The notes under the pieces are model-generated. The model was given only the letters and a program-made list of their open reading frames with translations. It made no database searches and was not told where the DNA came from. From assembly GCA_902800495.1 (NCBI GenBank), contig CADCET010000016.1:1-54010 (forward strand): a DNA stretch of 54,010 nucleotides, in the 5' to 3' direction. This stretch comes from an uncultured Prevotellaceae bacterium (GTDB taxonomy: Bacteria > Bacteroidota > Bacteroidia > Bacteroidales > Bacteroidaceae). Positions 19,843 to 51,522 of this stretch are shown here, piece after piece; the stretch's first letter is position 1; the number at the start of each line of letters is the position of its first letter. A program made the translations under genes and the position numbers.

Positions 19843-19850
19843 GTGCCGCT

Positions 19851-19947
19851 TATTCGTCCACGAAACACCTAAAATACCGTTTCGTGGACAAATAGACACC
19901 GCTTATTCGTCCACGAAACACCCAAAACACCGTTTCGTGGACAAATA
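19851..19947. repeat. Two tandem 53-nt hairpin units
   Basis: Unit 1 has arms 19851-19866 and 19879-19894, and unit 2 has arms 19904-19919 and 19932-19947. Each stem is 16 bp with one mismatch (TATTCGTCCACGAAAC) around a 12-nt loop. The units are nearly identical, differing at two loop positions. Confidence 0.85.
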
Positions 19948-31282: not shown

Positions 31283-32605
31283 TTACAAGTGTTTCTTAAA
31301 GAACTGCAAGACACGTTCCTGTGCTTTCAGCGGACAGCTGTGGGGGATGTCCCACAGTTCGGTCTCGAGTTTGTCGTCGGCACCCTGCGAGCGCCAGACG
31401 TCGTGCATGATAGCAAAAGCCTTCTCGACACCCGGCACGGGGAACAGCTTGTCTTGCGACCCGTTGATGAAGAGCATCGGCTTGGGACAGGCCAGCGAGG
31501 CCACATGCGGGTAGTCGAGCCAGCGGCGCAACCCCGGGAAGCAGTTGGCGAAACCGCCGTTCTCGGTGCGCTTGTATTTGAATGACATCTGGTCGTCGGT
31601 GGTTGTGAGCCAGCAGATGGCAGCGCCGACCTTGATGCGGTCGCTCAAGGCTGAGAGCATCCACGCACGGTAGGCACCCATCGAACAGCCCGTACAGCCT
31701 ATGCGCTTCGGATCAACCTCGGGCATCTGGGCCAGGAATTCCGTACCGCTGATGTCGTCGTAGGTCATATAGGCACTGAGGTCGATGCCGTACATCATCA
31801 TGTTGCCGGCAATCATATCATAACGGTCGCGACGCGGCCCTTCCTCCTGACCGCGCTCACCCCACATCGGGGCATCGGCCGAGAATACCACGTAGCCGTG
31901 ACGGGCCAGGTAATCGCCAAAGAACTGGCCTTCATAGAGCTGAGCGGCCCACTCGTCGGCATCCTTGATGACCGTGGAGTCCTCGCAGGCCAGCGGTCGT
32001 ATCATCTTCTCCTTACCAATGAAGAGGTGGGCACCGTGGTCGTGCAGCACGTTGACAGCCGGGAACGGTCCCTTGCCGTCAGGAATAAGCACGTAGGCAG
32101 GTACGGTGTAGTAGCGCGACAGGCGGATTTCAATCTTCCGTGCCGTATAGCCGTCGCGCTGCTCCTCAAATAAAAGTGAAGAGTGAAGAGTGAAGAGTGA
32201 AAAATTTGCTGCCGCGTTCTGCTCCTTCGGAGGGGCAGGGGGAGGCATGAGCATGCAGTCGAAGACCTTCTGACGGGCTGCTTGACGCCACGCGTCGAAG
32301 TCCTTGATGGGACTGTTGCCCCACGCCATCGGGAAAGTCAAGTCCTTGATGAGCGAGTCGGCATAGACAGGCAGGTTGCGTTTGAACTCGAACTTTGTGC
32401 GCTTTTGCGCGTTGACCTCGAGGTACGAGGTACGAGGTACGAGGTACGAAGTGAAAGATTCGAGATACGAGGTACGAGGTACGAGGTACGAGAATAGTAA
32501 GAGGACTGTCATCAATCCCCGGAGTACGAGCTGCAAATCACTTCTCGTACCTCGCACCTCGTACCTCGCACCTCGAGCCCCAATCCTCGCACCTCGAAAT
32601 ATCAT
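31283..32605 (-). CDS. Secreted alpha/beta hydrolase (esterase) with repeat-riddled N-terminus
   Basis: This is an esterase of the acetylxylan esterase/Abhydrolase_7-like type. Catalytic Ser is in TGCSMGAYRAW, Asp in FINGSQDKLFPV and His in WDIPHSCP. PAVNVLHDHGAHLF carries the oxyanion region. The N-terminus is remarkable. Residues 3-21 and 37-63 are encoded by octamer repeats (ARYEVRGTR, then SYLVPRTSYLE twice), with the signal-peptide core LMTVLLLFS between them. A third block (FSLFTLHSSLLFE) comes from GTGAAGAG repeats at 32174-32202. The start overlaps the MerR stop by 4 bp. The native start may be the Met at 32512. Confidence 0.8.
   Translation of the reverse strand: MIFRGARIGARGARYEVRGTRSDLQLVLRGLMTVLLLFSYLVPRTSYLESFTSYLVPRTSYLEVNAQKRTKFEFKRNLPVYADSLIKDLTFPMAWGNSPIKDFDAWRQAARQKVFDCMLMPPPAPPKEQNAAANFSLFTLHSSLLFEEQRDGYTARKIEIRLSRYYTVPAYVLIPDGKGPFPAVNVLHDHGAHLFIGKEKMIRPLACEDSTVIKDADEWAAQLYEGQFFGDYLARHGYVVFSADAPMWGERGQEEGPRRDRYDMIAGNMMMYGIDLSAYMTYDDISGTEFLAQMPEVDPKRIGCTGCSMGAYRAWMLSALSDRIKVGAAICWLTTTDDQMSFKYKRTENGGFANCFPGLRRWLDYPHVASLACPKPMLFINGSQDKLFPVPGVEKAFAIMHDVWRSQGADDKLETELWDIPHSCPLKAQERVLQFFKKHL
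32174..32202. repeat. GTGAAGAGTGAAGAG repeats inside the esterase
   Basis: Tandem GTGAAGA units in frame encode SLFTLHSSL on the minus strand. Confidence 0.65.
32416..32597. repeat. Paired octamer repeat blocks around the esterase signal peptide
   Basis: CGAGGTAC units occur at 32416-32452 and 32459-32493, and the inverted CTCGTACCT units occur at 32543-32577 and 32585-32597. Between them (32494-32542) lies the native hydrophobic core of the signal peptide. Confidence 0.85.
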
Positions 32606-32952
32606 TGCACGTAGTCTAACTGTCGCTTCAGTGCCATTAGCTCGTCGCGCACGCCGATGAGACGTGTCAGCACGTCGGCCGTCTTGTCGGCACCGTCGCG
32701 GTTGCTGTTGATAATCTTCTTGGCAGCAGCCAACTTGAAACCGCGAACCTTCACCAGGTTATGGATGAGCTTGATTTGCTCAATATCCTTCTCCTGATAC
32801 TGGCGCACCTTAGCCGGCCCTGAAGTCTTCGGCTTCAGGAAGGGGAACTCCGTCTCCCAGTAGCGCAGCGTACTCTCGTTCAGGCCGAACATCTCGGCCA
32901 CTTCCTTGATGCTGTAGTACAGCTTCTGTGGTTTGTATGCATTCAACGCCAT
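32602..32952 (-). CDS. MerR-family transcriptional regulator
   Basis: This 116-residue protein has a MerR winged helix-turn-helix: YYSIKEVAEMFGLNESTLRYWETEFPFLKPKTS then QYQEKDIEQIKLIHNLVKVRGFKLAAAKKII, and a short coiled-coil C-terminus. No effector-binding domain or metal-binding Cys is present, so the regulatory signal is not evident. It belongs to a short MerR class often seen in Bacteroidota. It is cotranscribed with a glycosyltransferase upstream and overlaps the esterase start by 4 bp. Confidence 0.88.
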   Translation of the reverse strand: MALNAYKPQKLYYSIKEVAEMFGLNESTLRYWETEFPFLKPKTSGPAKVRQYQEKDIEQIKLIHNLVKVRGFKLAAAKKIINSNRDGADKTADVLTRLIGVRDELMALKRQLDYVQ

Positions 32953-39760: not shown

Positions 39761-41220
39761 TCCTCTTCCACCTGTGTTCCTGGCCAATTGACCAGGAACA
39801 ATTTTTCTGTAGCGCGCGTAAAGGCAGTGTAGAGCCAGTGCAGATAGTCGCTGTTCAGCATGTCGTCGGTCATATAGCCCTGGTCGATATAGACGTGCTG
39901 CCACTGTCCGCCTTGCGCCTTATGGCAGGTGACGGCGTAGGCAAACTTCACCTGCAGGGCATTATAGTAGCGGTCTTCCTTGACCTTCTTCATGCGGTCG
40001 GCCTTCAGTGGAATGTCGGCATAGTCGGCCATGACGCTGGCAAAGAGCTTGTCTTGCTGTTCGCGGGTCAGGGCGGGAGCCTCCGACGTCAACGTGTCGA
40101 GCAGAGTCGTGGCCGTCAGTTCGTAGTCGTCGTAGTCGGGGAAGGTCATCGTCACCTCGGCAAAGCGGAACCCATACTGTTCATGAATGTTACGCACCCG
40201 CTGCACAACAGCCACGTCGCCATTGGCAATGAACTCAATCCCGCTGCTGTTCTCCTTACTCTTTACTCCTTCCTCCTTACTCCAATAATAATTATTCTTC
40301 ACAATCATCAGCCGGTCGCCGCGACACAACTCGTCCTCGCGGTCGAGAACGGTATTGCGGATGCCCTGATTATAGATATTGGCACGCTTGTTGCTGCGGG
40401 TGATGACGATGGTGTCGTCAGCACCCGCACGACTGTAGCTGGTGGCCAACGACTCTATCAACTCGTCGCCGGGAACAATCTGTATGTCAGAAAACCCCAT
40501 CAAGCGAACCTGCGGCATCAGTATCCTCTCTCCTCTCTCCTCTCTCCTCTCTCCTCTCTCCTCTCTCCTCTCTCCTCTAAATTCTCTCCTCTCTCCTCTA
40601 ATCCTCGTCGCATTAAACAGGATGCCCGACTCCTGCGACTGTCGCAGCACCTCGTTCAGGTCGGCCTCAAAAACGGTCATGCCATAGCAACGCAGCACGG
40701 AGGTCTGCAGCGCCGGACTCTCCTGCTCGCCAACAGGCGGCAGCTGGGCACGGTCACCAATGAGCAACAGACGGCAGTTGCGGTCGTTATAGACGAAACG
40801 CATCAGATCGTCGAGCAACGGGGTTTCGCCATTGGCTATCATCGATGCCTCGTCGACAATGAACAGCGTATCGTGGGCACCGTTGAAGTTCAAGTCGAAA
40901 CCACCCTCCAAGGACTTCTGACGGTAGATACGGCGATGGATGGTGTAGGCCGGACAGCCAGCATAGAGCGAGAACACTTTGGCAGCTCGACCTGTAGGCG
41001 CCATCAACACCAGGTTCTGCTTCAGCGCCATCATACCACGGACGATGGCAGCTGCCAACGTGGTCTTGCCCGTACCTGCTGACCCGCGCAGCACCATCAG
41101 GGCCTGACTGTCGCGACTGCTCATAAAGTCGGCAAACACGCGTAAGGCAGCCGTCTGCTCTGCTGTCGGCGTCAGGTGAAATGACTGTAAAATACGATAT
41201 TTTAGCTCGTCGCCTATCAT
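39757..41220 (-). CDS. RecD-like ATP-dependent DNA helicase
   Basis: This 487-residue superfamily 1 helicase has the P-loop LRGSAGTGKTTLAAAIVRG (about 43-61). Walker B with the DEAS box is LFIVDEASMIA (about 119-129), followed by LLIGDRAQLPPVG. The C-terminal motifs are TCHKAQGGQWQHVYID and LYTAFTRATEKLFLVNW. It resembles RecD2/Pif1-like repair helicases lacking the long RecD2 N-terminus. Residues about 207-232 are GERREERGERREERG repeats encoded by CTCTCCT runs at 40524-40600. A second short repeat (EEGVKSKEN) lies at 40252-40287. Confidence 0.88.
   Translation of the reverse strand: MIGDELKYRILQSFHLTPTAEQTAALRVFADFMSSRDSQALMVLRGSAGTGKTTLAAAIVRGMMALKQNLVLMAPTGRAAKVFSLYAGCPAYTIHRRIYRQKSLEGGFDLNFNGAHDTLFIVDEASMIANGETPLLDDLMRFVYNDRNCRLLLIGDRAQLPPVGEQESPALQTSVLRCYGMTVFEADLNEVLRQSQESGILFNATRIRGERREFRGERREERGERREERGERILMPQVRLMGFSDIQIVPGDELIESLATSYSRAGADDTIVITRSNKRANIYNQGIRNTVLDREDELCRGDRLMIVKNNYYWSKEEGVKSKENSSGIEFIANGDVAVVQRVRNIHEQYGFRFAEVTMTFPDYDDYELTATTLLDTLTSEAPALTREQQDKLFASVMADYADIPLKADRMKKVKEDRYYNALQVKFAYAVTCHKAQGGQWQHVYIDQGYMTDDMLNSDYLHWLYTAFTRATEKLFLVNWPGTQVEED
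40252..40287. repeat. AGTAAGGAG repeats inside the helicase
   Basis: Units of AGTAA(A/G)GAG occur in frame. Related units occur in dnaG (45603-45645) and the SGNH gene (49918-49948). Confidence 0.65.
40524..40600. repeat. CTCTCCT tandem repeats inside the helicase
   Basis: About eight CTCTCCT(C) units with one imperfect unit in the middle encode Gly-Glu-Arg-Arg-Glu-Glu-Arg repeats. A shorter block lies in queE at 44172-44206. Confidence 0.9.
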
Positions 41221-41282: not shown

Positions 41283-42074
41283 GGAAAAGGGCGGATTATC
41301 ATCCGCATCGGACAAAACCACCTGTCGTTCTCGACGATTGACCCCATGCAGGCTGAAGCTCCTGTCACCTACGCGCCGTATGTGATGAAGAGCGGTATCT
41401 CCGTACCTGCTAATCTGCGTGAGGCGCTCAGCGATGCCGACCTGCGAGAGATGGGTTATAGAAAGGTATTGGCAATGATAGACACACCTGTACTGCTCGT
41501 CCCCATCGAGCAGTTCGAGGAGAACAGCATCAGTGTGATGTACAATCAGGCCTTCCCCCGCAAAGGGATGGACATGGTGCTCTACAACGTTCTGTCAGAC
41601 CTGAACGCCGTCTCTGTCTTTGCCATTAGCAAAGACCTGAACACCGTTCTACACGACAATTTTGCCGACGTCAAGATGATGCCCGTCATGTCGCCCGTCT
41701 GGCGCCATCTGCACCAGCGGTCGTTCACGGGCAACCGCAACAAGGTGTACGGCTATCTCCATGACCGCAAGCTCGACATCTTCTCGTTCCAACAGAATCG
41801 GTTCAAGTTCTGCAACCAGTTCGAGGCCATACGGCAACAAGACGCCCTTTACTTCCTGCTCTATGTCTGGAAACAGCTGATGCTTGACAACGAGACCGAC
41901 GAGATGCACTTGGTAGGCTCCTTTGCCGAAATGCCAGAGCTAGTCAACGAATTGCGCCGATATATCCAGAAGGTGTACGTCATCAACCCATCGGCAGAGT
42001 TCAACCGAGCACCGGCAACCAATATAAAGGATATGCCTTTCGATCTGATGGCACTGATATCAAAGGGGAGATGA
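41271..42074 (+). CDS. DUF3822 protein
   Basis: This 267-residue protein matches the DUF3822 pattern as I remember it (actin-like fold, conserved in Bacteroidota): IIIRIGQNHLSFSTID, MYNQAFPRKGMDMVLYNVLSDLNAVSVFAI and LYFLLYVWKQLMLD. It lacks a signal peptide. Its partner is rsmD, which starts inside its stop codon (4-bp overlap), a pairing I recall as common in this phylum. The function is unknown, though its link with a 16S rRNA methyltransferase may be meaningful. Confidence 0.8.
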   Translation: MINQGKGRIIIRIGQNHLSFSTIDPMQAEAPVTYAPYVMKSGISVPANLREALSDADLREMGYRKVLAMIDTPVLLVPIEQFEENSISVMYNQAFPRKGMDMVLYNVLSDLNAVSVFAISKDLNTVLHDNFADVKMMPVMSPVWRHLHQRSFTGNRNKVYGYLHDRKLDIFSFQQNRFKFCNQFEAIRQQDALYFLLYVWKQLMLDNETDEMHLVGSFAEMPELVNELRRYIQKVYVINPSAEFNRAPATNIKDMPFDLMALISKGR

Positions 42075-42646
42075 GGATTATCACAGGAAAATACAAGGGG
42101 CGGCATTTCGACATTCCCCGCTCGTTCAAGGCCCGTCCGACGACGGACTTTGCCAAGGAGAACATCTTCAACGTGCTGGCAGGCTATATCGATTTCGACG
42201 GAGCCAAGGCACTCGACCTGTTCTCGGGCACGGGCAGCATTACGCTCGAGCTGTTGTCGCGTGGCTGTAGCCGAGTGGTCAGCATCGAACAAGACCGTGA
42301 CCACCACCGCTTCATCTGTGACTGTCTGAAAAAGTTAAATGACAAGCAGGCACTTCCCCTTCGTGCTGACGTATTCCGTTTTCTGAAGTCCTGCCATGAA
42401 CAATATGACTTCATCTTTGCCGACCCGCCTTACGCTCTGAAGGAACTGCCACAGATTCCCGACCTTGTTATTGAGAAAAAGCTCCTAAAACCTGACGGCA
42501 TCTTCGTTTTCGAACATGGCAAGGATTACGACTTCTCGCAGCACCCGTATTTCCGCGAACACCGTGCTTACGGTAGCGTCAATTTCAGCATTTTTACATC
42601 AGCGGCGCCAGCATCCGAAGCAGACTCTCCGTCAGTCGAGCCATAA
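42071..42646 (+). CDS. rsmD: RsmD, 16S rRNA (guanine966-N2)-methyltransferase
   Basis: This 191-residue SAM methyltransferase starts MRIITGKYKGRHFDIPRSFKARPTTDF, has ALDLFSGTGSITLELLSRG (SAM-binding motif I) and FIFADPPYALKELP (catalytic DPPY). RsmD methylates G966 in the small-subunit rRNA. It overlaps DUF3822 by 4 bp. Its last 53 bp overlap the cls gene on the other strand. Confidence 0.93.
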   Translation: MRIITGKYKGRHFDIPRSFKARPTTDFAKENIFNVLAGYIDFDGAKALDLFSGTGSITLELLSRGCSRVVSIEQDRDHHRFICDCLKKLNDKQALPLRADVFRFLKSCHEQYDFIFADPPYALKELPQIPDLVIEKKLLKPDGIFVFEHGKDYDFSQHPYFREHRAYGSVNFSIFTSAAPASEADSPSVEP

Positions 42647-43946
42647 ATCGCGGACGGTTGTAGGTGCGCAGATCCTTCATCGGCACTGACTGTGCCACGT
42701 CGTCCATAAAGATTTTTTTCATCGCCAACGCCGTCTCACTATCGTAGAAGAATATGTTAGCCTCAAAATTATTCTCAAACGAACGGAAATCGACGTTTGT
42801 CGAGCCACAGGTGCTAATGGTGTCGTCGCACACCATCAGTTTGGAGTGCAAGAAGCCCGCCGTATAGAATGCCACATGGATGCCAGCCTTCTGCACCTCA
42901 CGCAGGTAACTGCGCCCCGCCCACTCCACGACCCACGAGTCGTTCTCCTTGGGCACCAAGACACGGACGTCGACGCCCGCTGCCGCTGCCGTCTTCAACG
43001 CAAAGAGTATTGGTTCTGTAGGCAAGAAATAAGGCGTCTCGATATACACATACTGCTTAGCACCTATAATGGTGCGGACATAGCTCCGCATAATCTCTGG
43101 CTGCGGCGAGTCGGGACCGCTGGTGACCATTTGCATGGAGCTGAGGGATAAAGAATGAGGGGTGAGAGTCGAAGGATAATACTTACGGTCGTTAATCAGG
43201 GTACGGTCAACGAAATACCAGTCAATGAGGAAGGCACGCTGCAGGGCATGAACCTCCGTGCCCGTCACCTTAACCATTGTGTCGCGCCAGGGTTGCGTCT
43301 TTGTTCCCTTGACATAGCGCAGGGCGATATTCATACCACCGACAAAGCCAACCCTGCCGTCGATGACCACCAACTTACGGTGGTTGCGGTAGTTCACCTT
43401 ACTGGTGAACGACGGAAAGCGCACGGGCAGGAACGGCACCACCTCAATACCCTCCTCACGCATCCGCTCGAAGAAGCGGTGAGGCACGCGCCAACAGCCT
43501 ACGTCATCGTAGATGATACGCACCTTTACCCCTTGGCGTACCTTGTCTATCAGAGCGTCAGCCACGAGATTACCCAAAGGATCGTTCTCGAAGATATACA
43601 TATTGATATGAATATGGTCTGTGGCCGAGGCTATAGAATGTAACAGAGCGGGAAAGAACTGATAGCCGTCGGTATAGCTCTCGACATGCGATGCCTCGTA
43701 CGGCACGGCATCGAACATTGAGCGTTTCGACAGTTCGCTGAGTGACCGTTGGCTGACGAGCCGCTTCTTACGGGTATTGACGCCAAAGAACAGATAGAGG
43801 ACGAAACCAACGACAGGAACGAACCAGATGACCAGCGCCCATGCCATCGTCTTGGCTGGCTGGCGGTTGTCCATCACCACATGGATGATGGTCAGCGCAG
43901 CGACGACGTAATAGACGGCGGCCAGTATGAGGTTCAGTTCGTGCAT
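42594..43946 (-). CDS. cls: Cardiolipin synthase (phospholipase D type)
   Basis: This 450-residue protein has two N-terminal membrane helices (ILAAVYYVVAALTIIHVVM and WALVIWFVPVVGFVLYLFFG). Two PLD HKD motifs follow: NHRKLVVIDGRVGFVGGMN and HSKLMVCDDTISTCGSTN. It condenses phosphatidylglycerol to cardiolipin at the inner membrane. The start at 43946 (MHELNLIL) is one base after the queE stop. The longer frame reading into queE is rejected. Last gene of the SGNH-C10-dnaG-que run. Confidence 0.92.
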   Translation of the reverse strand: MHELNLILAAVYYVVAALTIIHVVMDNRQPAKTMAWALVIWFVPVVGFVLYLFFGVNTRKKRLVSQRSLSELSKRSMFDAVPYEASHVESYTDGYQFFPALLHSIASATDHIHINMYIFENDPLGNLVADALIDKVRQGVKVRIIYDDVGCWRVPHRFFERMREEGIEVVPFLPVRFPSFTSKVNYRNHRKLVVIDGRVGFVGGMNIALRYVKGTKTQPWRDTMVKVTGTEVHALQRAFLIDWYFVDRTLINDRKYYPSTLTPHSLSLSSMQMVTSGPDSPQPEIMRSYVRTIIGAKQYVYIETPYFLPTEPILFALKTAAAAGVDVRVLVPKENDSWVVEWAGRSYLREVQKAGIHVAFYTAGFLHSKLMVCDDTISTCGSTNVDFRSFENNFEANIFFYDSETALAMKKIFMDDVAQSVPMKDLRTYNRPRFMARLTESLLRMLAPLM

Positions 43947-43947
43947 A

Positions 43948-44643
43948 CTATTTGAAACCGACGAGTTTATGTGTCTGCAACGAGAGCCGCCAGTGGGGAT
44001 GCTCCTTGATATACTCCACACACCTATTTATTATACGCGCGTTACGCTCGGCATCGCCCGTGTCGCAGGGTTGGAGATAGAGATGTCGAGGTGCGAGGTG
44101 CGAGATGCGAGGTGCGAGATATGCTTCAGGATCAGTATTTTCATCAAACACCACTTTCAGTTCATCAGGTACTCTCTCTCCTCTCTCCTCTCTCCTCTCT
44201 CCTCTAAGTTTCGGCGACACCGTCAGCCAGTCGAGGTTCTGTGGCGCCGGACGGGTGCCGTTGCTCTCCATAGCCACCTCAAAGCCGTGACGATGGAGCA
44301 GGTCGACGAACGCCTCGTCCACCTGCAGCGTCGGCTCGCCACCGGTCAGCACGACTAACGGTTTTCGAGATGCGAGGTACGAGGTACGAGGTGCGAGATT
44401 ACTACCTATCGAAGAATCAGCCTCCATGCTATTCTCGTACCTCGCATCTCGCACCTCGTACCTCGAAATTTCAGCAACAATCTCGTCGTCCGTCATTTCG
44501 CGGTGCGTGTCGAACTCCGTATCGCAGAACGGACAACGGAGGTTACAACCAGCAAAACGGACGAACACTGCTGCCCGTCCTGTGTTATAGCCCTCACCCT
44601 GCAGCGAATAGAAGATGTCGTTAATCCTTCTCATACGTAGCAA
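43948..44643 (-). CDS. queE: QueE, 7-carboxy-7-deazaguanine synthase, with repeat inserts
   Basis: This radical SAM enzyme makes 7-carboxy-7-deazaguanine, precursor of queuosine. The 231-residue chain shows FAGCNLRCPFCDTEFDT (the CxxxxxxCxxC-type iron-sulfur site of QueE is at CNLRCPFC), VVLTGGEPTLQ and MESNGTRPAP. Three inserts are encoded by repeats: about 59-93 from the 101-bp palindromic element (44366-44466), about 146-157 from CTCTCCT runs (44172-44206), and about 173-186 from octamers (44086-44123). QueE is normally near 180-220 residues. It overlaps queD by up to 23 bp. Confidence 0.9.
   Translation of the reverse strand: MLRMRRINDIFYSLQGEGYNTGRAAVFVRFAGCNLRCPFCDTEFDTHREMTDDEIVAEISRYEVRDARYENSMEADSSIGSNLAPRTSYLASRKPLVVLTGGEPTLQVDEAFVDLLHRHGFEVAMESNGTRPAPQNLDWLTVSPKLRGERREERGERVPDELKVVFDENTDPEAYLAPRISHLAPRHLYLQPCDTGDAERNARIINRCVEYIKEHPHWRLSLQTHKLVGFK
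44086..44123. repeat. Octamer repeats inside queE
   Basis: CGAGGTGCGAGATGCGAG-type units in frame, encoding LAPRISHLAPRHL. Confidence 0.75.
44172..44206. repeat. CTCTCCT repeats inside queE
   Basis: Four CTCTCCT units in frame encode a GERREERGER stretch. The helicase gene carries the same repeat. Confidence 0.8.
44366..44466. mobile_element. 101-bp palindrome-armed element inside queE
   Basis: The arms are tandem CGAGGTAC octamers on the left and their reverse complements on the right, with a centre containing AGAATCAGCCTCCATGCTATT. The element at 45496-45596 in dnaG aligns over the same 101 bp without a gap, about 80 positions identical by hand count. It is in frame with queE. Confidence 0.8.
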
Positions 44644-44953
44644 TGTTTCCCTCGCTCTCCTGCACGGTGGCCTTATAGCAGTGGGGCACGCGCTCCACGC
44701 ACCAGCGGGCCAAGTTTTCGGCCGTCGGATTGAAGGGCAGCACCTCGTTCAGGATGCGGTGGTCCAGCGGTTCCTTGATAAGCCGCTTGATCTCGCTGAA
44801 ATCAATCACCATACCGTTACGGTCAAGCTTCTCCGAACGGCAGTAAATCATAATCATCCAGTTATGACCGTGTACGCGGGTACACTTGCTCTCATAGTCC
44901 AACTCCAGGCTATGACAAGCCGAGATTTCTATTTTCTTTTGTACGTAATACAT
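44621..44953 (-). CDS. queD: QueD, 6-carboxytetrahydropterin synthase
   Basis: This 110-residue PTPS-fold enzyme converts dihydroneopterin triphosphate to 6-carboxytetrahydropterin in queuosine biosynthesis. The zinc-binding and catalytic motifs are visible: CTRVHGHNW (His and Cys ligands), DFSEIKRLIKEPLDHRILNEV and NPTAENLARWCVERV. It precedes queE and follows dnaG with a 7-nt gap. Confidence 0.93.
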   Translation of the reverse strand: MYYVQKKIEISACHSLELDYESKCTRVHGHNWMIMIYCRSEKLDRNGMVIDFSEIKRLIKEPLDHRILNEVLPFNPTAENLARWCVERVPHCYKATVQESEGNIATYEKD

Positions 44954-44960
44954 ATCCCTA

Positions 44961-46964
44961 TTATTTCATCACATCACTTCCCAACTTCTTAGCTAACGCA
45001 TCGCGTAGTTCCTGCGTATCCTTATATTCTTGCATCAGTTTCATGACGTGGTCCATGTCGTTCGACGCCTGACGCATAGCCAACTGTATCTGTTTCAGTC
45101 GCTGGCTGACCAAATCCATCCTTAAGTCCATCACCAAATGGACGACCCGCTGACGAAGTGCTCCCTCACGCGGCTCCACGGCAAAGCGTCCTCCCAACTG
45201 GTGACGATCGACGGCCAACTGCATAGCCACTTTACTCACCTCAATGTCGGGGTGGTTCATAAAGTAAGACTCAGCCTTGAAGCCCTCATCCCCGCTGTGC
45301 GCCACAGCCTCGGCCAACATCTGGTTATAGAGCGGGTTCGAGAACTGAATATTGTCCTCCCCTAAGTCGTAGGCCACATACTGCGCCACGTTGAAATCGA
45401 TGAACTGACCATCGTCTGTCTCCACGTTTTCGTAGATAATCTCTTCACCGTGACGGACGACCTCGCGGATGAGTAGGGCCTCGACCGTGTTTTCTCGAGA
45501 TGCGAGGTGCGAGATACGAGGTGCGAGATTACTCTCTGCTGTAGAATCAGCCTCCAAGCTATTTTCGGGCCTCGGTCCTCGGACCTCAGAGCTCGAATGC
45601 TCCTCCTCGTTACTCGTTCCTCCTTTCTCCTTACTCTTATCTTCAATATCCTTCTTGATGAAGTTATTCATCGACGTCAGCAGCGTCTGTTCCTTCAAGC
45701 CAAGACGCGAAGATAGGTCGCTGAGATAGGTTGAGCGCAGGATGGCATCGGGGATGACGGAGATGCTCTTGACAATGCCACTAATAGCTTCAGAGCGCTT
45801 CACTGGGTCGCTGACGCCCTCCACAGTCAGATGCGTCTTGAATGAGATGAAGTCTTCCTGATGTTCCTCAATATACCGCTTCAGTTCCTCGGTAGAGTGT
45901 TTCCGGGCAAAGGAGTCCGGGTCGTCACCATCGGGCAGCAGCAAGACCTTCACGTTCATACCTTCGGCCAGCAGCATATCCGTACCGCGCATAGCTGCAT
46001 GGATACCCGCTTCGTCACCGTCGTAGAGCAGGGTGATGTTCTGCGTAAAGCGACGCAGCATCTTGATTTGGTAGATGCTGAGTGCCGTACCAGAGTTGGC
46101 CACCACATTCTCAACACCTGCCTGATGCATGGCGATGACGTCGGTATAGCCTTCGACCATAAACACACGGTCTTCCTTGACGATGGCTTTCTTTGCCTGG
46201 TAGATGCCATAGAGCTCGCGTTCCTTATGGTAGATATCGGAGTCGGGCGAGTTGACGTATTTCTGCGCCACCCCCTTCGTCCGTGAGTCGAGCACACGTC
46301 CACCGAAAGCCACCACCTTACCACTGACGTTCAGCCAGGGGAAGATGGCGCGGCCGGAGTAGCGGTCTACAAGTCGCGAATCATCTTTCTCGTTTCTCTC
46401 GAAGCACAGTCCCGTCTTCACCAAGAACTCGGCCTTATAACCAGCCTTCTTGGCTGCCAAAGCCAGCGCATCACGTTTCTGCGGCGAGTAGCCTAACTGG
46501 AACTTCTCGATGATGTCGTCGCGGATGCCACGACTACGGAAATACTGCTTGCCTATCGCGATGCCGTCAGGATCGTTCTTCAGCGTCTGATGGAACCAGT
46601 CCTTCGCCCACTCGTTGACAATGAACATCGACTCGCGCTCGTTCTGCTCCTGACGCTCCTCGTCAGTCAGTTCCTTCTCGACAATCTCGATATTGTACTT
46701 CTTCGCCAACCACCGCAATGCCTCGGGATAGGTAATCTGCTCGTGCTCCATCAGGAAGCCGGCAGGCGTACCGCCCTTGCCGCAGACGAAACAGTGACAG
46801 ATATTCTTGGCGGGCGACACCATAAACGACGGATTACGGTCGTCGTGGAAAGGACACAGGCCCTTGTAGTTCACGCCACTCTTACGGAGTGTCACGAACT
46901 CACTGACCACGTCGACAATCTGCGCCGCATCGATAATCCTGTCTACTGTCGCCCTGTCAATCAT
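44961..46964 (-). CDS. dnaG: DNA primase with an in-frame palindromic insert
   Basis: DnaG makes RNA primers for replication. The 667-residue protein has the zinc ribbon CPFHDDRNPSFMVSPAKNICHCFVCGKGG (about 38-66), the catalytic RNA-polymerase domain with FVMVEGYTDVIAMHQAG, TOPRIM motifs (LYDGDEAGIHA and LLPDGDDPD) and a C-terminal DnaB-interaction helix domain. Residues about 456-489 come from the 101-bp element at 45496-45596, and about 440-454 from AGTAAGGAG repeats. Both lie in the linker between the catalytic and C-terminal domains. It starts one base after the stop of the small companion ORF. Confidence 0.96.
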   Translation of the reverse strand: MIDRATVDRIIDAAQIVDVVSEFVTLRKSGVNYKGLCPFHDDRNPSFMVSPAKNICHCFVCGKGGTPAGFLMEHEQITYPEALRWLAKKYNIEIVEKELTDEERQEQNERESMFIVNEWAKDWFHQTLKNDPDGIAIGKQYFRSRGIRDDIIEKFQLGYSPQKRDALALAAKKAGYKAEFLVKTGLCFERNEKDDSRLVDRYSGRAIFPWLNVSGKVVAFGGRVLDSRTKGVAQKYVNSPDSDIYHKERELYGIYQAKKAIVKEDRVFMVEGYTDVIAMHQAGVENVVANSGTALSIYQIKMLRRFTQNITLLYDGDEAGIHAAMRGTDMLLAEGMNVKVLLLPDGDDPDSFARKHSTEELKRYIEEHQEDFISFKTHLTVEGVSDPVKRSEAISGIVKSISVIPDAILRSTYLSDLSSRLGLKEQTLLTSMNNFIKKDIEDKSKEKGGTSNEEEHSSSEVRGPRPENSLEADSTAESNLAPRISHLASRENTVEALLIREVVRHGEEIIYENVETDDGQFIDFNVAQYVAYDLGEDNIQFSNPLYNQMLAEAVAHSGDEGFKAESYFMNHPDIEVSKVAMQLAVDRHQLGGRFAVEPREGALRQRVVHLVMDLRMDLVSQRLKQIQLAMRQASNDMDHVMKLMQEYKDTQELRDALAKKLGSDVMK
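45496..45596. mobile_element. 101-bp palindrome-armed element inside dnaG
   Basis: It begins CGAGATGCGAGGT and ends GAGCTCGA, with the centre GATTACT...AGAATCAGCCTCCAAGCTATT. It aligns gap-free with the queE element at 44366-44466 and is in frame. The encoded peptides share EN-S-(M/L)-EADS and SNLAPR-(T/I)-S-(Y/H)-LASR. Confidence 0.8.
45603..45645. repeat. AGTAAGGAGAAAGGAGG repeats inside dnaG
   Basis: Units of AGTAACGAGGAGG and AGTAAGGAGAA next to the 101-bp element encode KSKEKGGTSNEEE. Confidence 0.65.
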
Positions 46965-46965
46965 A

Positions 46966-47154
46966 TCATTTGATCATGTTAAACAGCTGGTTGTCGCCCC
47001 ACAGTTGCTGCTCTGGCGAAAACAGGTCTTCATCGTCACGGCTGCCAATCGTCGGATCACTCTGGTCACCGGCGGTTGGTCCTGAGCCTGCCAATATCAC
47101 AACCTTATCTGTCATCACCCACTCTGTGGCGGGCGTCATATACTGCTTTTTCAT
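46966..47154 (-). CDS. Small companion ORF of T9SS cargo (copy 2, 62 codons)
   Basis: The ATG at 47154 is 8 nt after a perfect GGAGG (47163-47167). It lies 19 nt after the stop of the C10 protease and one base before dnaG. The peptide starts MKKQYMTPATEWVMTD, has KVVILAGSGPTAGDQ in the middle and an acidic end (IGSRDDEDLFSPEQQLWGD). It resembles copy 1 (20319-20474) in start, LAGS core, acidic SR-DEDL segment, Shine-Dalgarno spacing and position. No signal peptide, no membrane segment. Function unknown. Confidence 0.7.
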   Translation of the reverse strand: MKKQYMTPATEWVMTDKVVILAGSGPTAGDQSDPTIGSRDDEDLFSPEQQLWGDNQLFNMIK

Positions 47155-47162
47155 ATCGTATT

Positions 47163-47167
47163 CCTCC
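47163..47167 (-). promoter_or_regulatory. Strong Shine-Dalgarno of companion ORF copy 2
   Basis: GGAGG 8 nt before the ATG, the same spacing as copy 1. Confidence 0.7.
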
Positions 47168-47173
47168 TTAATT

Positions 47174-49735
47174 TTATTTTACGACCACTTTCTTACCACC
47201 AATAATATACAAGCCCTTCGTAGGAGTAGCCACCTGACGGCCCTGCAGATCATAATAATTGTCAATTGTCAATTGTTCATTATCCATTGTCTGAATGCCC
47301 GTCGTCTCTCCGTCGTCAGAGCCGATAGCTAACGAGCCTAAGCTACCAGAGCCCACAGACTTGAAGTAGGCTCGGAAAGGATCGACCGTGGCGGTTGTAT
47401 TCTTAAACTGGGAACCTGCAGCGTTCAGCACGTAGCCGGTCACCGACTTGCCTGCCAGCATACCGATGAACTCGTAATTGGTTTTGCTAACAGTCGTGTT
47501 GGCCGTAGCCTTGACTGTGCCACTGCCCTCGAAGGTGATATTCTTGTTCGTCAAATCCCATCCAGCACCATAGCTATTGCCAGGTACGGCAATGATATAC
47601 GGTGTGTTGGCAGTAAATGCCGTGGCGTATGTGAAGTTCACAGTACCGACACCGTCGCTGTTGAACTGCTTCAGCCAGAAGTGCTTGCCGGTATCACTAC
47701 CATTGCGGAACCAGTCAATCACCTTGCTACCCTGCTTCACGGTCGACACATTGAAGGGCACGACGATAGTGCTCCAACCAGCAGTACCTGTTGCTGCCTG
47801 TGTAAACTGGCGGGTATAGGTAGCCTTGGTAGCCGTAAAGTCAACAGGCGAATAGAAGTCGTTACCATCTGTCAGCGTCAACGTAGCACAGGTGCCGTTC
47901 TGAATAACGTTCTTGCCCGTCAGTCCTGACGGAACACTGCTACCCACGAAGTAGAGCGTATTCGGATTGCTGTTCGGCGTCACCGAGGTCACGCCACTAA
48001 CATGAGAGACGTCAAGTACAAGTGCTTCTTCAGGTGTTGTGACATTGGAAGCGTTATGTACAATTGTTTCTGTTCCGTCAGCAGCATAGGTTTTGATGGC
48101 TCCAATATTTTCTAATGTCATCACATCTCCGTTTGAACTAACGGTGACCTTCACATAAGTCTCATCGGCGCCTATGCACTTCCGCCACTTATCGGTGCCG
48201 TTCTTACGACAGACACCAACTAACCTATATTCTCCATCAGACAGTTTCTCGCCAAATGTACAACTAAATTTGCCATAACGCCTTATTCCATTAGGATAGT
48301 TTATCGTGGCTGGATCTTTAACCAGCTTCACAAAAGCCCCATTCTGATAAAGGGCTATTCCCCAGTCGAAGTCAAGACTCCATCCTGTATTGTTATTAAA
48401 AGAGTAATCTAAGCGCTGGGCATACACTGTATTTCCTTCCCGATAAAAATAATCGTTGAGATTATAAGGTATCCATTCACACGAAGGGAAGTAACACGAA
48501 CATTGACTTACCGTCAAACAGGCCTCGTCAGTCAAGCTGACGCCATCATCCACAGGACTGACGTTCACCAAAGCCACCTGATCAAGACTATAGCCACCGG
48601 CAGAGCCACCAGTTCCTTGAGAAGGGGGATTCATTACAGAGAGTTTGAAGCTACCATCGCTCTGGCTACCCCAGCCCCAGTTGACCCAGAATAAATCGTC
48701 GTAGTCATAGCCGTCGATGATAAAGGCATGACCGCCTGATGGAGAGTCGCCACCGAAGAGAACGGGGCCGTTCGTGCTCAGTTCCGCATAGATGGCATCC
48801 ACCCAACCGTCGTATGTATAGTCTTCCGCATAGATATTTTTTGCATCGGGATCATAACCAAAATAGTTAATCAGCGCCGTAGTGGCCGATTCGTTGCTGG
48901 CAGAAGAGCCACCTGCAGCAGCATGCCTATACTGCATCTGGACACCCGCACCGATATACTCCATCAGATGGGCCACCTGTTCTTTAGCATCGTCAGTGCT
49001 TGGGTAAGCTTCAGCGGCAATCTTTGTCCAGTCGATGGTAATAGCCGGTTTGTCAGGCATACCATTATACCCCGTATTGCCAAAGTACCAAGGGCCGTAA
49101 CCATCTTTTGCAAGGTACGAGGGTATTGCCGTCGTCGTCGTTGACTCAATGCCATGCTTCGTAGCCTGATAGTACATCAGCTGAGCCGTGGCGGTAGCAA
49201 CACAACCTGTAACAGATTTCGACAAGCCATTATTGGTAATAACATCTGGGCAATACTTATTATATGGTGTCAACTGGTTCCACTTAGTCGTCAGCAATGG
49301 ACTAATGGAAGCCTTACTCTTACGCAGACCGCCGCGTGCCTCAGCTACCGGACGGTTCTTGACACCATGCTCTTTCATCCACTGAATCTGGTCGGCATAG
49401 CCCTGGAGCCACGACTTGAGGTTCGCGGGCATATTCTCGGCAGTTATCTCGCCCTTCTCGGCATAGCCTAAAATGAGGTCGCCGGTGCAGTCGTCGCCAC
49501 TGACGATGACAAAACCGTCCTTTTGACCGACGTTAAACACATACAGCTGGTCGGCGGCGGGGCCGTCCTTCAACTGCAACTTGACGGGGTTCATACCACG
49601 GGCAGCGGCCACACCGCTACCACGCTCATTGAGGAACTGCAGGGCCTTCTGGCGCGCTGCGTCCTGACCGACGGGGGCTGCTGTCATCACCATACTGACC
49701 AGCAGACCAACCAACGTTGAAAGATTTCTTTTCAT
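47174..49735 (-). CDS. C10-family (SpeB-like) cysteine protease with T9SS tail
   Basis: This 853-residue secreted protein has a signal peptide (MKRNLSTLVGLLVSMVMTAA). A streptopain-type propeptide (LQLKDGPAADQLYVFNVGQKDGFVIVSGDD) leads to the mature protease. The catalytic Cys is in SVTGCVATATAQLMYY (Cys about 178 from this start) and the His in GGHAFIIDGYD (about 336), followed by FWVNWGWGSQSDG. Beta domains follow, and the end (DLQGRQVATPTKGLYI then GGKKVVVK) is a T9SS-type tail. The stretch before the tail (DNEQLTIDN) is encoded by CAATTGACAATTGA repeats (47257-47288). Related to interpain A of Prevotella. Confidence 0.92.
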   Translation of the reverse strand: MKRNLSTLVGLLVSMVMTAAPVGQDAARQKALQFLNERGSGVAAARGMNPVKLQLKDGPAADQLYVFNVGQKDGFVIVSGDDCTGDLILGYAEKGEITAENMPANLKSWLQGYADQIQWMKEHGVKNRPVAEARGGLRKSKASISPLLTTKWNQLTPYNKYCPDVITNNGLSKSVTGCVATATAQLMYYQATKHGIESTTTTAIPSYLAKDGYGPWYFGNTGYNGMPDKPAITIDWTKIAAEAYPSTDDAKEQVAHLMEYIGAGVQMQYRHAAAGGSSASNESATTALINYFGYDPDAKNIYAEDYTYDGWVDAIYAELSTNGPVLFGGDSPSGGHAFIIDGYDYDDLFWVNWGWGSQSDGSFKLSVMNPPSQGTGGSAGGYSLDQVALVNVSPVDDGVSLTDEACLTVSQCSCYFPSCEWIPYNLNDYFYREGNTVYAQRLDYSFNNNTGWSLDFDWGIALYQNGAFVKLVKDPATINYPNGIRRYGKFSCTFGEKLSDGEYRLVGVCRKNGTDKWRKCIGADETYVKVTVSSNGDVMTLENIGAIKTYAADGTETIVHNASNVTTPEEALVLDVSHVSGVTSVTPNSNPNTLYFVGSSVPSGLTGKNVIQNGTCATLTLTDGNDFYSPVDFTATKATYTRQFTQAATGTAGWSTIVVPFNVSTVKQGSKVIDWFRNGSDTGKHFWLKQFNSDGVGTVNFTYATAFTANTPYIIAVPGNSYGAGWDLTNKNITFEGSGTVKATANTTVSKTNYEFIGMLAGKSVTGYVLNAAGSQFKNTTATVDPFRAYFKSVGSGSLGSLAIGSDDGETTGIQTMDNEQLTIDNYYDLQGRQVATPTKGLYIIGGKKVVVK
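47257..47288. repeat. CAATTGTCAATTG repeats before the T9SS tail
   Basis: Tandem (T)CAATTG(T) units lie in frame between the last domain and the sorting tail. Confidence 0.65.
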
Positions 49736-49752
49736 AATCATTGTGTATTAAA

Positions 49753-51450
49753 TTATTTCTTTAGATATTTTGCTAACTCACTCTTATTCTGACGCAGTCC
49801 CTTGGCAAACGACTGGGCGTTCATCTGGGCACCAGCCTTCGACGTGTGGGTATGATCTTTCTTGAAGTACTTCGCGCCGGCCTTCGCCTTGATACGCTCT
49901 TCGGCAGTCTTGCGCTGTTCCTTACTGCTCATCTCCTTACTACTCAAAGGCTTGCTAAACTTCTTGTCAAGGAAGTCGGCGCTGATGTTGTGAAGATCAA
50001 TGAACTCCACGCCCGTCTGCTCAACCACCTCGCGATACCACTTGCCATACGAGCCGTCGCGGCGCTCTATCTTACCGCCAGGCCACTCGTTGCGAGGCGT
50101 CAGGCTCACCAGAATTGGCGTGGCTCCCTTCTCACGGACGTCGTCGATGAACTTGCGGAGATACCAGCCGAAGCTGTAGACCACCTCGTAGGTGCCGTTG
50201 TCCATCTTATAGACGTGCAAGGTGTCCTTCGTGCCGGGGATGACGCCACGGGCCTTCGCATCGGTAATGGGGCAGATGTCGTTATGGCCAAACTGAATCG
50301 TAACGAAGTCGCCGGGCTGCAACGAGTTGTAGACCTCATCCCACAAGCCCTCACGCAGGAACGAGCGCGTGGAGCGACCGGCACGGGCAGCATTGAACAG
50401 CGTTATCTTCGACTCGTCGAAGACCGTGGCAGCCTGCGAGGCCCAGCCCCACATACCGTCGTCATCGTTGTCGGCGTTCTTCACCGTGGAGTCGCCAGTG
50501 AAGAAGACGACGGGCTTGCCGGCCTCGCGCTTCACAGGCTTCACCTTCAGCGGCACGTTCTGCATCATAGCCTGCAGGGGGCGCAGTTGCGGGTTCTGAC
50601 TCTCCCACAGCCCCTCAGCAGCCGAACGGGCGTTCATCTCGGCGCCGAACTTCGACGTATGAATCTTGTCGCCCAAGAAATGGTATTGCTGTTTCCAGCG
50701 GCTATAGCTGTCGAGCTTCGCACCAGACCTTTCGTTCAGGTCGACGAAGGGCACGCCCTCTACGGCAGCGATGTAGGCAGCCCATTCCGTCTGGGGCTTG
50801 CGCATGATTCTGCCTTTATCGTCGAAGGCGTCGCGCGGTGTCAGCGACATCAGGACGGGATTCGCCCCCTTGGCCCTGGTCTCGCTGATATAGCGGCGCA
50901 AATAGTTACCGTAGGAGTAGACCGTGTCCTGACGCTGTGTACGCTGGTTGAAACCTACATAGCACGTGTCAGGGTCGACACCGGGGATGACGGCACGGGC
51001 CCGCTTCGCATCGAAGAACTCGCCGTTGTCGTTATGGCCGATGGAGACGATGACCCAGTCGCCAGGCTTCAGGGCGTCGCGCACTGCCGGCCACAGGTCG
51101 GTGTAGAACGTGCGGGTAGACATACCGCCAAGGGCCTGGTTCTCTACCGTTATCCGTTTGGCATCGAAATACTGGTTGGCATAGTAGCCCCAGCCCCACT
51201 GTCCGTTGGAGCCGTCGCCACGGGTGCCATTGCGCATCGTCGAGTTGCCCACGAGGAACAAAACGGGGTTCGTGCCTACACGCGTGGAACCGGGTTTAGG
51301 CCGCGACATCAGTGCCTTAGCTATCGAGTCAGGGGTGTTGTCCACCACCTTGTTCACATCTTCTATCGGGTCTGGGAGATTATCAAATCCTTGTGCCCCT
51401 ACGGCTGTCGTCATCGCAGCCACAATTGCTATTGTCAGTAGTCGTTTCAT
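49753..51450 (-). CDS. Secreted double SGNH-hydrolase (rhamnogalacturonan acetylesterase type)
   Basis: This 565-residue protein has a signal peptide (MKRLLTIAIVAAMTTAVGA) and two SGNH domains. Domain 1 has FLVGNSTMRNG (nucleophile Ser in a GNS instead of GDS context), IGHNDNGEF and GDKIHTSKFGAEMNA. Domain 2 has FTGDSTVKN, FGHNDICP and KDHTHTSKAGAQMNA. CE12-type domains like these deacetylate pectin side chains. The tail has AGTAAGGAG repeats (SSKEMSSKEQRK). The gene leads a minus-strand run with the C10 protease, companion ORF and dnaG. The -7 box is at 51473-51480. Confidence 0.9.
   Translation of the reverse strand: MKRLLTIAIVAAMTTAVGAQGFDNLPDPIEDVNKVVDNTPDSIAKALMSRPKPGSTRVGTNPVLFLVGNSTMRNGTRGDGSNGQWGWGYYANQYFDAKRITVENQALGGMSTRTFYTDLWPAVRDALKPGDWVIVSIGHNDNGEFFDAKRARAVIPGVDPDTCYVGFNQRTQRQDTVYSYGNYLRRYISETRAKGANPVLMSLTPRDAFDDKGRIMRKPQTEWAAYIAAVEGVPFVDLNERSGAKLDSYSRWKQQYHFLGDKIHTSKFGAEMNARSAAEGLWESQNPQLRPLQAMMQNVPLKVKPVKREAGKPVVFFTGDSTVKNADNDDDGMWGWASQAATVFDESKITLFNAARAGRSTRSFLREGLWDEVYNSLQPGDFVTIQFGHNDICPITDAKARGVIPGTKDTLHVYKMDNGTYEVVYSFGWYLRKFIDDVREKGATPILVSLTPRNEWPGGKIERRDGSYGKWYREVVEQTGVEFIDLHNISADFLDKKFSKPLSSKEMSSKEQRKTAEERIKAKAGAKYFKKDHTHTSKAGAQMNAQSFAKGLRQNKSELAKYLKK
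49918..49948. repeat. AGTAAGGAGATGAGCAGTAAGGA repeats in the SGNH gene
   Basis: Two AG(T/C)AGTAAGGA units in frame encode SSKEMSSKE. Confidence 0.55.
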
Positions 51451-51472
51451 CATTTTGAAGGTTTCTGTGGTG

Positions 51473-51480
51473 CAAAGATA
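51473..51480 (-). promoter_or_regulatory. -7 box for the SGNH/C10/dnaG run
   Basis: The minus strand reads TATCTTTG then CACCAC, about 20 nt before the ATG. It diverges from the ABC permease promoter. Confidence 0.55.
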
Positions 51481-51522
51481 CAATTTATTTTTGAAAAGGC
51501 TGCGGTATTCTAAAAAAAATAT

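What the first reader, a model, noticed from the sequence alone, without database searches (positions are those of the whole stretch)
45496..45596. Same 101-bp palindrome-armed element inserted in frame in dnaG and queE
The element in dnaG (45496-45596) and the one in queE (44366-44466) align over 101 bp without a gap, about 80 bases identical by hand count. Each has tandem octamer arms that are inverted repeats of each other and a centre with AGAATCAGCCTCCA-GCTATT. Both are read through as protein, giving the shared peptide features EADS and SNLAPR. The dnaG insert falls in the interdomain linker. This behaviour resembles Rickettsia palindromic elements, which also colonise genes in frame.
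Basis: partly seen in the sequence, partly recalled or inferred. Interest (0 to 1): 0.82.

Follow-up and report, generated by a model that had tools for sequence, protein, structure and literature searches.

The report
In-frame hairpin repeats studding Prevotella genes
A 102-base hairpin-forming DNA repeat lies scattered through genes of rumen Prevotella bacteria, and in most of the genes checked it is read in the same frame as a short water-loving peptide, including in core genes for copying DNA and making protein.

Summary
The dnaG and queE segments are 82/101 identical without gaps and belong to a dispersed family. The arms are heptamer arrays (CGAGRTR), not octamers. The usual unit is T-(CGAGRTR)4-CGAG, a centre of about 36 nt, the inverted arm, then A; 41 of 63 copies collected (orthologues included) have exactly these arms. 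It is an insertion, not an ancestral feature: G051, the closest relative, has an extra in-frame copy in dnaG (+96 bp) where this genome is empty, and QueE carries it in 4 of 13 genomes. A GTDB-wide scan gave 57 stretches, 56 titled Prevotella/Prevotellaceae. At 33 Pfam-supported sites, 26 (27 with the decayed dnaG copy) read in one frame, SRYEVRGTRYEN-x(n)-GNLAPRTSHLAPR; about 8 were expected (P 4e-11). Translated centres are hydrophilic. Hosts include DnaG, KsgA, AlaRS, ArgRS, PriA, HolB, LpxB. The same loops carry other repeat families in relatives. It works like Rickettsia palindromic elements; membership was not shown and how it spreads is unknown. Every genome with two or more matches is incomplete (62-85%).

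The parts
45495..45596 (-). 102-bp palindromic element, copy in dnaG (interdomain linker, site A), read in frame on the - strand
   Evidence: 82/101 identical to the queE copy; shared with G051 with 2 differences, both in the centre
45496..45527 (+). heptamer arm of the dnaG copy: four CGAGRTR units + CGAG
45528..45563 (-). 36-nt centre of the dnaG copy (encodes the EN..EADSTAES..N region)
45564..45595 (+). second arm of the dnaG copy, decayed
   Evidence: weaker hairpin
44365..44466 (-). 102-bp palindromic element, copy in queE
   Evidence: orthologous copies in G051, RUG200 and RGIG4807, absent in the 9 other genomes aligned
44366..44397 (+). heptamer arm of the queE copy
44398..44433 (-). 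36-nt centre of the queE copy
44434..44465 (+). inverted heptamer arm of the queE copy
44961..46964 (-). dnaG, DNA primase (host gene)
   Evidence: Pfam Zn_ribbon_DnaG, DNAG_N, Toprim, DnaB_bind
46374..46379 (-). dnaG site B (TCGCGA), empty here; G051 has 96 bp more (32 codons) of the element at this point
50508..50554 (-). site in a GDSL/SGNH hydrolase gene that lacks the element here and has it in G051 (L090:8960-9062)
32418..32576 (+). third, diverged palindrome of the same heptamers, inside an alpha/beta hydrolase gene (31286-32758, -), read in another frame; not in the counts
44087..44118 (+). single-arm CGAGRTR array in queE, read as LAPRISHLAPR on the - strand
44172..44205 (+). a different heptamer array (CTCTCCT type) in queE, read as RGERREERGER on the - strand

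Best explanation
This is a family of non-autonomous, palindromic DNA repeats compatible with open reading frames. The usual unit is 102 bp and has been inserted many times into genes of rumen Prevotella. Shown here: the unit is standardised (four heptamers plus CGAG on each side of a centre). Its CGAGRTR arms contain no stop codon in any of the six frames. In Pfam-supported genes it is mostly read in one orientation and phase, as a hydrophilic peptide of about 34 residues. It is present in one and absent in another relative at the same site. Inferred: it spreads by copying into new sites, often near the source copy, perhaps through its hairpin as single-stranded DNA during replication or through an enzyme not identified here. 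Insertions survive when the phase adds a flexible, soluble linker to a surface loop, then decay, shorten or are replaced. It works like Rickettsia palindromic elements.
For: Dispersed family in this genome, 0 in the reversed control. Presence/absence: dnaG site B; SGNH hydrolase; HolB-like gene, full in G000, half in G051, none in G067; MFS loop; MatE in G000 but not in G051 or G067, KsgA in G000 but not in G067; QueE 4 of 13 genomes. Arms stop-free in all 1536 frames tested. Phase: 26 of 33 Pfam-supported sites by regular expression, expected 7.9 given each copy's open frames, P 3.6e-11. Mean hydropathy of centres in that phase -1.12 (26 genic copies) vs +0.36 (22 non-genic copies, 11 with a stop); distinct peptides 24 vs 15, P 1.6e-4. 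In the genic copies the same DNA in its other stop-free frames averages +0.28 (P 8e-9). Neighbouring copies share centres in G000, 0.89 vs 0.70, permutation P 1e-4. Standard arms in 41 of 63 copies. Both DnaG inserts lie in stretches of pLDDT below 50.
Against: No transposase was tied to it: Y1-transposase genes found in G000 and G051 sit among other repeats. No consistent target duplication or target sequence was found. The neighbour effect is not significant in G051 (P 0.11) or G141 (P 0.17). By the regular expression 7 of 33 sites fail the common phase; one of these, dnaG site A, is in phase by eye, so 6 of 33 read another way. Arms of one copy are not more complementary than shuffled arms; they are less so (0.907 vs 0.923), so the hairpin is not visibly maintained by selection. 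Only 1 of 107 good-quality genomes matched the pattern, with an atypical hit. Low pLDDT also occurs outside the inserts in the DnaG model. Translation itself was not measured.
Confidence: 0.75

Rival explanations
1. Not a mobile element: heptamer arrays arise locally by slippage, and template switching in a hairpin makes the inverted arm. Similar palindromes at different genes are convergent, and genes simply tolerate stop-free heptamers.
For: The genome has many other tandem arrays of period 7-9 in this window, several open in frame in genes. Single-arm and half elements exist. Arms vary by three heptamers, as in queE of G051, +21 bp.
Against: Unrelated genes share the non-repetitive centre boundaries AATA[CG]...TAAT, and in G000 three genes share nearly the same 36-nt centre. 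41 of 63 copies have exactly four heptamers plus CGAG on each side. Convergence does not give a common centre.
Confidence: 0.15
2. A regulatory RNA or DNA hairpin that is kept because it acts on the mRNA or DNA of its host genes (for example translational pausing or mRNA stability).
For: Strong predicted hairpins (queE -55.7 kcal/mol, z -7.9). The queE element is more alike between RUG200 and RGIG4807 (0.99) than its flanks (0.87 and 0.79).
Against: Arm pairing within a copy is no better than shuffled. Orthologous genes in relatives lack the element. The Pfam families of the hosts point to no one pathway. There is no Rfam match in the window.
Confidence: 0.06
3. The element is present in the mRNA but skipped: ribosomes bypass the hairpin, as reported for palindromic elements in mitochondrial genes of the yeast Magnusiomyces (mentioned in a passage of PMC6649704).
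For: A long hairpin inside essential genes is a plausible bypass structure.
Against: Bypassed DNA needs no particular phase, yet 26 of 33 genic copies read in one phase and their centres are hydrophilic in that phase but not in the other open frames.
Confidence: 0.03
4. Assembly artefact of metagenome bins.
For: Each genome with two or more matches is 62-85% complete; 1 of 107 genomes of at least 90% completeness and at most 5% contamination matched.
Against: The same queE insertion is at the same codon in four genomes. The record names (UBA4341, RUG742, RGIG4807 and others) come, as I recall them, from separate projects.
Confidence: 0.02

Closest known systems
Rickettsia palindromic elements (RPE) and Wolbachia palindromic elements (WPE)
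   Same: About 100-150 bp palindromic repeats, dispersed, inserted in frame in unrelated housekeeping genes, located in exposed parts of proteins, possibly with shared hot spots for different families (passages of PMC10969869 and PMC3767692 seen).
   Different: Here the arms are heptamer arrays with a variable centre, the hosts are rumen bacteria of another phylum, and relatives differ in presence/absence at several sites. Sequence relation was not tested; the Genome Research paper on RPEs is not held.
REP elements inside genes (GTAG and CGTC tagged, some RAYT-associated)
   Same: Palindromic repeats sometimes lying within replication and repair genes, also as dimers, in several species (passages of PMC3733652).
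   Different: REPs are described there as 20-40 bp with a GTAG or CGTC end tag. These units are 102 bp, end in TCGA, and flank none of the RAYT genes examined.
MITEs
   Same: Short, non-autonomous, inverted ends, sometimes fused in frame to genes (PMC10969869 passages).
   Different: No target duplication and no related full transposon seen; the inverted repeats make up most of the element.
Short tandem heptamer repeats (cyanobacterial STRR, recalled; TAACTGA repeats of Beggiatoaceae and some Bacteroidetes, PMC4679880 passages)
   Same: Seven-base tandem units dispersed in a genome, in part in Bacteroidetes.
   Different: The Beggiatoaceae TAACTGA repeats are described as abundant and intergenic (title and passages). 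Here 41 of the 63 copies are assigned to genes, and they are palindromic with a centre.
PARCEL (palindromic amphipathic repeat coding elements)
   Same: Palindromic DNA that codes for protein (PMC2996958 passages).
   Different: PARCELs are tandem 25-residue amphipathic domains associated with membrane proteins, not single linkers in housekeeping genes.

Membership tests
Rickettsia palindromic elements | palindromic repeat of roughly 100-150 bp present in many copies | tested here: met
   102-bp unit; 63 copies collected across genomes, orthologues included; 12 near-full copies in G000
Rickettsia palindromic elements | in-frame insertion in unrelated protein-coding genes with a conserved reading phase | tested here: met
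   26 of 33 sites in one phase, P 3.6e-11; unrelated Pfam families
Rickettsia palindromic elements | inserts in exposed, non-structured segments | tested here: inconclusive
   only DnaG was modelled: pLDDT below 50 at 194-225 and 480-523, which hold the inserts, but also at 28-32, 243-251, 253-294, 324-326, 619-628 and 696-699; 23 sequences, mean pLDDT 71.3
Rickettsia palindromic elements | sequence homology to RPE/WPE families | not tested
   no RPE sequences were at hand; the Genome Research paper is not held
Rickettsia palindromic elements | occurs in Rickettsiales | tested here: not met
   57 stretches with the pattern in the GTDB collection: 56 in Prevotella/Prevotellaceae records, 1 in Cellvibrionaceae, none in Rickettsiales
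REP/RAYT system | RAYT (Y1 transposase) gene flanked by the repeat | tested here: not met
   PF01797 hits over cut-off in 3 of 5 genomes. No heptamer pair near the G000 and G085 genes (L183, L184). In G051 (L182) an element lies about 1.2 kb away inside another gene, while other repeats lie next to the RAYT
REP/RAYT system | GTAG or CGTC end tag | tested here: not met
   ends are T-CGAG...CTCG-A; the T and the A are each present in 56 of 63 copies
MITE | target-site duplication | tested here: inconclusive
   none seen at HolB or dnaG site B; other empty sites too diverged
MITE | related autonomous transposon with the same ends | tested here: inconclusive
   no match longer than about 107 bp among 66 in G000, but the genome is 82% complete
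Rfam-listed RNA families | match at gathering score | tested here: not met
   0 matches in the window

The most novel reading that the evidence does not exclude
Rumen Prevotella carry several competing families of ORF-compatible repeats: this heptamer palindrome, a GC-rich palindrome, CTCTCC and AGTGAAG heptamers, and 9-mers. They insert into the same permissive protein loops, replace one another between related species, are homogenised between neighbouring copies and across species, and keep rewriting the linkers of essential proteins on a short time scale.
Probability: 0.5. Interest if true: 0.8.

Novelty: new variant of a known kind. Interest (0 to 1): 0.68.

Why it matters
In-frame palindromic repeats are known best from Rickettsia and Wolbachia. 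Passages seen also name Methanocaldococcus jannaschii (PMC2996958) and REPs inside genes of other bacteria (PMC3733652), and a 2024 review calls a Rickettsia-like process in other prokaryotes 'conceivable' (PMC10969869). A family in Prevotella with presence/absence between relatives, remnants, and several repeat families at one protein loop makes testable how such elements insert, why one phase survives, and whether they supply new linkers to essential proteins. It also matters for annotation: these peptides are shared by unrelated proteins and can mislead homology searches and structure prediction.

Tried and rejected
RAYT association: rejected for the genes examined, since other repeats lie next to them. 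Phage vector: an exact-pattern scan of the viral collection gave 0. Rfam: 0 in the window. Compensatory maintenance of the hairpin: tested and not seen; the trend is the other way. Target site: dnaG site B (TCGCGA in G000) suggested either a specific target or an excision scar. HolB (GGAGAA|GACAAT in G067) has no such site, and G062 (L047) has a loop of the same length with TCG at the same place, so neither reading is claimed. The Cellvibrionaceae hit consists of TCTCGTAA-type repeats and lacks the common centre, so it is treated as chance.

Centre length is a multiple of 3 at 30 of 33 genic sites (my count) and in 9 of 22 non-genic copies; Fisher P 1.4e-4. I do not rest on it: a copy that shifted the frame would break the gene and be counted as non-genic, so part of this follows from how genic was defined. 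The same holds for '0 stops' in the 26 genic copies.

Literature: searches for an earlier report gave, in the rows listed, none that by title and start of abstract describes this in Prevotella or Bacteroidetes. Rows listed of papers found: 20 of 127, 8 of 8, 15 of 80, 15 of 19,831, 12 of 116, 10 of 23, 10 of 10, 8 of 53. The library lacks most subscription journals, so this does not show that none exists.

Rows left out of counts. The 63 copies are 32 genic representatives, 9 orthologues of them in other genomes, and 22 non-genic. The 33-site phase test used the 32 representatives plus the dnaG linker copy of the window. The non-genic group includes copies whose ORF had no Pfam hit (L032, L073, L081, L136, L156), one upstream of the domain (L084) and those with ORFs under 199 aa, which were not scanned. 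The strict pattern missed KsgA site 1 and the DnaG linker copy of G056, G000 C45 and the window palindrome at 32418-32576; none of these four is in the test. The first hydropathy comparison with 'non-genic' copies wrongly contained orthologues of genic ones; one search repeats it without them. The phase null takes each open frame as equally likely and sites as independent; neighbouring copies in one genome may not be.

Full report
WHAT IS THERE. The dnaG segment (45496-45596) and the queE segment (44366-44466) match at 82 of 101 positions without a gap. The 21-base centre motif occurs twice in the window and never in 100 shuffles. The arms are tandem heptamers CGAGRTR, so 'octamer' is wrong. 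With the outer T and A each unit is 102 bp. Both genes lie on the minus strand and both units are open through. The queE unit folds at -55.7 kcal/mol (z -7.9) and the decayed dnaG unit at -40.4 (z -2.75).

A FAMILY. BLAST of the dnaG copy against its own genome (G000, 3.12 Mb, 86 contigs, 82% complete) gave 66 matches at E up to 10, counting both strands and single arms. A structural pattern found 10 sites and its reversed control none. together give 12 near-full copies. In 249 same-genus genomes (G000 included, a sample of a larger group) the pattern matched 13, with no control matches. Of the 107 with at least 90% completeness and at most 5% contamination, 1 matched, with an asymmetric 71-nt hit. 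The eight genomes with two or more matches are 62-85% complete. A scan of the GTDB collection gave 57 stretches, 56 titled Prevotella or Prevotellaceae, several of them naming rumen or reticulum samples. The other is a Cellvibrionaceae record that looks like chance. A scan of the viral collection gave 0. From everything held I extracted 63 copies with distinct sequence and flanks, orthologues included. Of these, 41 have exactly four heptamers plus CGAG on each side, and the flanking T and A are each present in 56 of 63.

INSERTION, NOT ANCESTRY. G051 is the closest relative (DnaG 99%; DNA 79-91% identical in the long matches along 41718-51491). It shares the queE and dnaG linker copies, but carries one more copy in dnaG after the KTGLC loop: 96 bp, 32 codons, where G000 has TCGCGA. 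An SGNH hydrolase gene of the window lacks the element in G000 and has it in G051. A HolB-like gene is full in G000, half in G051, and reads LLGE|DNAM in G067. MatE is occupied in G000, not in G051 or G067; KsgA is occupied in G000, not in G067. QueE could be read in 13 genomes (16 rows, three of them repeats); the element is present in four (G000, G051, RUG200, RGIG4807) and absent in nine. At the DnaG linker it is present in 3 of 30 genomes aligned (G000, G051, G056).

PHASE AND PEPTIDE. The CGAGRTR arms contain no stop codon in any frame: 0 of 1536 frames over all 256 four-unit arms. Forty proteins were scanned with Pfam. At 33 Pfam-supported sites, one per gene and position, 26 read as SRYEVRGTRYEN-x(n)-GNLAPRTSHLAPR. 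The decayed dnaG linker copy makes 27 by eye. Given 3 to 6 open frames per copy, 7.9 were expected (P 3.6e-11). The six others are PriA-2, U32-2, MurF-Alr, RsmF, GH43 and MatE-2; some of these may not be true members (centres of 23 or 46 nt in PriA-2, U32-2 and GH43). Host genes include DnaG, QueE, KsgA, AlaRS, ArgRS, PriA, HolB, LpxB, TamB, Fkp and MFS and MatE transporters (several short names are mine, from the Pfam matches). Centres read in the common frame have mean hydropathy -1.12 in 26 genic copies, against +0.28 for their other open frames (P 8e-9) and +0.36 for 22 non-genic copies (distinct peptides 24 vs 15, P 1.6e-4). An AlphaFold model of G051 DnaG (23 sequences, mean pLDDT 71.3) has pLDDT under 50 at 194-225 and 480-523, which hold the two inserts. 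It is also under 50 at 253-294 and some shorter stretches that are not inserts, so the model is only moderate support.

LOCAL COPYING AND EXCHANGE. In G000, centres of copies on one contig (up to 8.3 kb apart) are 0.89 identical, others 0.70 (permutation P 1e-4). In G051 and G141 the trend is not significant (0.11 and 0.17). UBA4341 KsgA has two copies about 600 bp apart with one mismatch in the centre. The queE element of RUG200 and RGIG4807 is 0.99 identical while the flanks are 0.87 and 0.79. This suggests homogenisation or transfer across species; stronger constraint on the element is not excluded.

SHARED LOOPS. The MFS loop that holds this element in G051 holds a different GC-rich palindrome in G000 and neither in G067 or G032. 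RUG200 has that GC-rich type at both dnaG sites, and RGIG4807 has what look like remnants of the heptamer element (ENGNLAPR, SSRHLAPRK) at both. The MatE loop holds a CTCTCC-type insert in G051 and G067. A query of the GC-rich type gave 59 matches in G000 and 58 in G051; these are matches on both strands, not copies.

HOW IT SPREADS is not shown. Y1 transposases are present in G000, G051 and G085 but sit among other sequence. No target duplication was found. Arms in one copy are less complementary than shuffled ones (0.907 vs 0.923, 41 copies). That may reflect loss of perfect palindromes, or assembly bias in MAGs. I favour copy insertion with local bias, filtered by the reading frame.

KNOWN RELATIVES. 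From passages only: RPEs (PMC10969869, PMC3767692), intragenic REPs (PMC3733652), PARCELs (PMC2996958), heptamer repeats (PMC4679880), coding palindromes of nematomorph mitochondria (PMC6649704). It works like an RPE. It is not filed as one: host group, arm structure and ends differ, and homology was not tested.

Noticed in passing
L105:2054-2157 (G000 C21:61722-61825); L140 dnaG: A second, GC-rich palindromic family (read as PLPEGRG...PPFREGKGVG and PKPLPEREG...PLPHREGQGEG) also sits in frame in the same protein loops; 59 matches in G000, 58 in G051.
   Followed up: partly
window 40524-40599, 40252-40283, 4434-4471, 6074-6149, 32175-32201: Other tandem arrays (period 7-9) lie inside genes and are open in frame: a helicase-like gene with AAA and UvrD_C_2 matches (RGERREE), a TPP enzyme gene (CEVRGAR), a chorismate-binding enzyme gene (SYGSYRTYGSYK), an alpha/beta hydrolase gene (FSLFTLHSSL).
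   Followed up: partly
L149 (UBA4341, KsgA): KsgA carries two copies of the element in two loops with one mismatch in the centre.
   Followed up: no
41 copies with standard arms: Arms of one copy are less complementary than randomly paired arms (0.907 vs 0.923, 5000 shuffles), as if perfect palindromes are avoided, lost or not assembled.
   Followed up: no
L182 and L183: RAYT-like genes with other repeats beside them: GCCCTGAAAGGGC-type in G000, and a long TGACCGCGTTGCGGTCA-type array in G051.
   Followed up: no
L091:3419-3452 (query 420-453): A repeat of about 34 bp matches at many places in G000, G067, G032 and G041; not characterised.
   Followed up: no
window 19846-19947: Two direct copies of a 53-bp unit containing an inverted repeat (CGTCCACGAAAC...GTTTCGTGGAC); no ORF of 120 aa or more spans it.
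   Followed up: no
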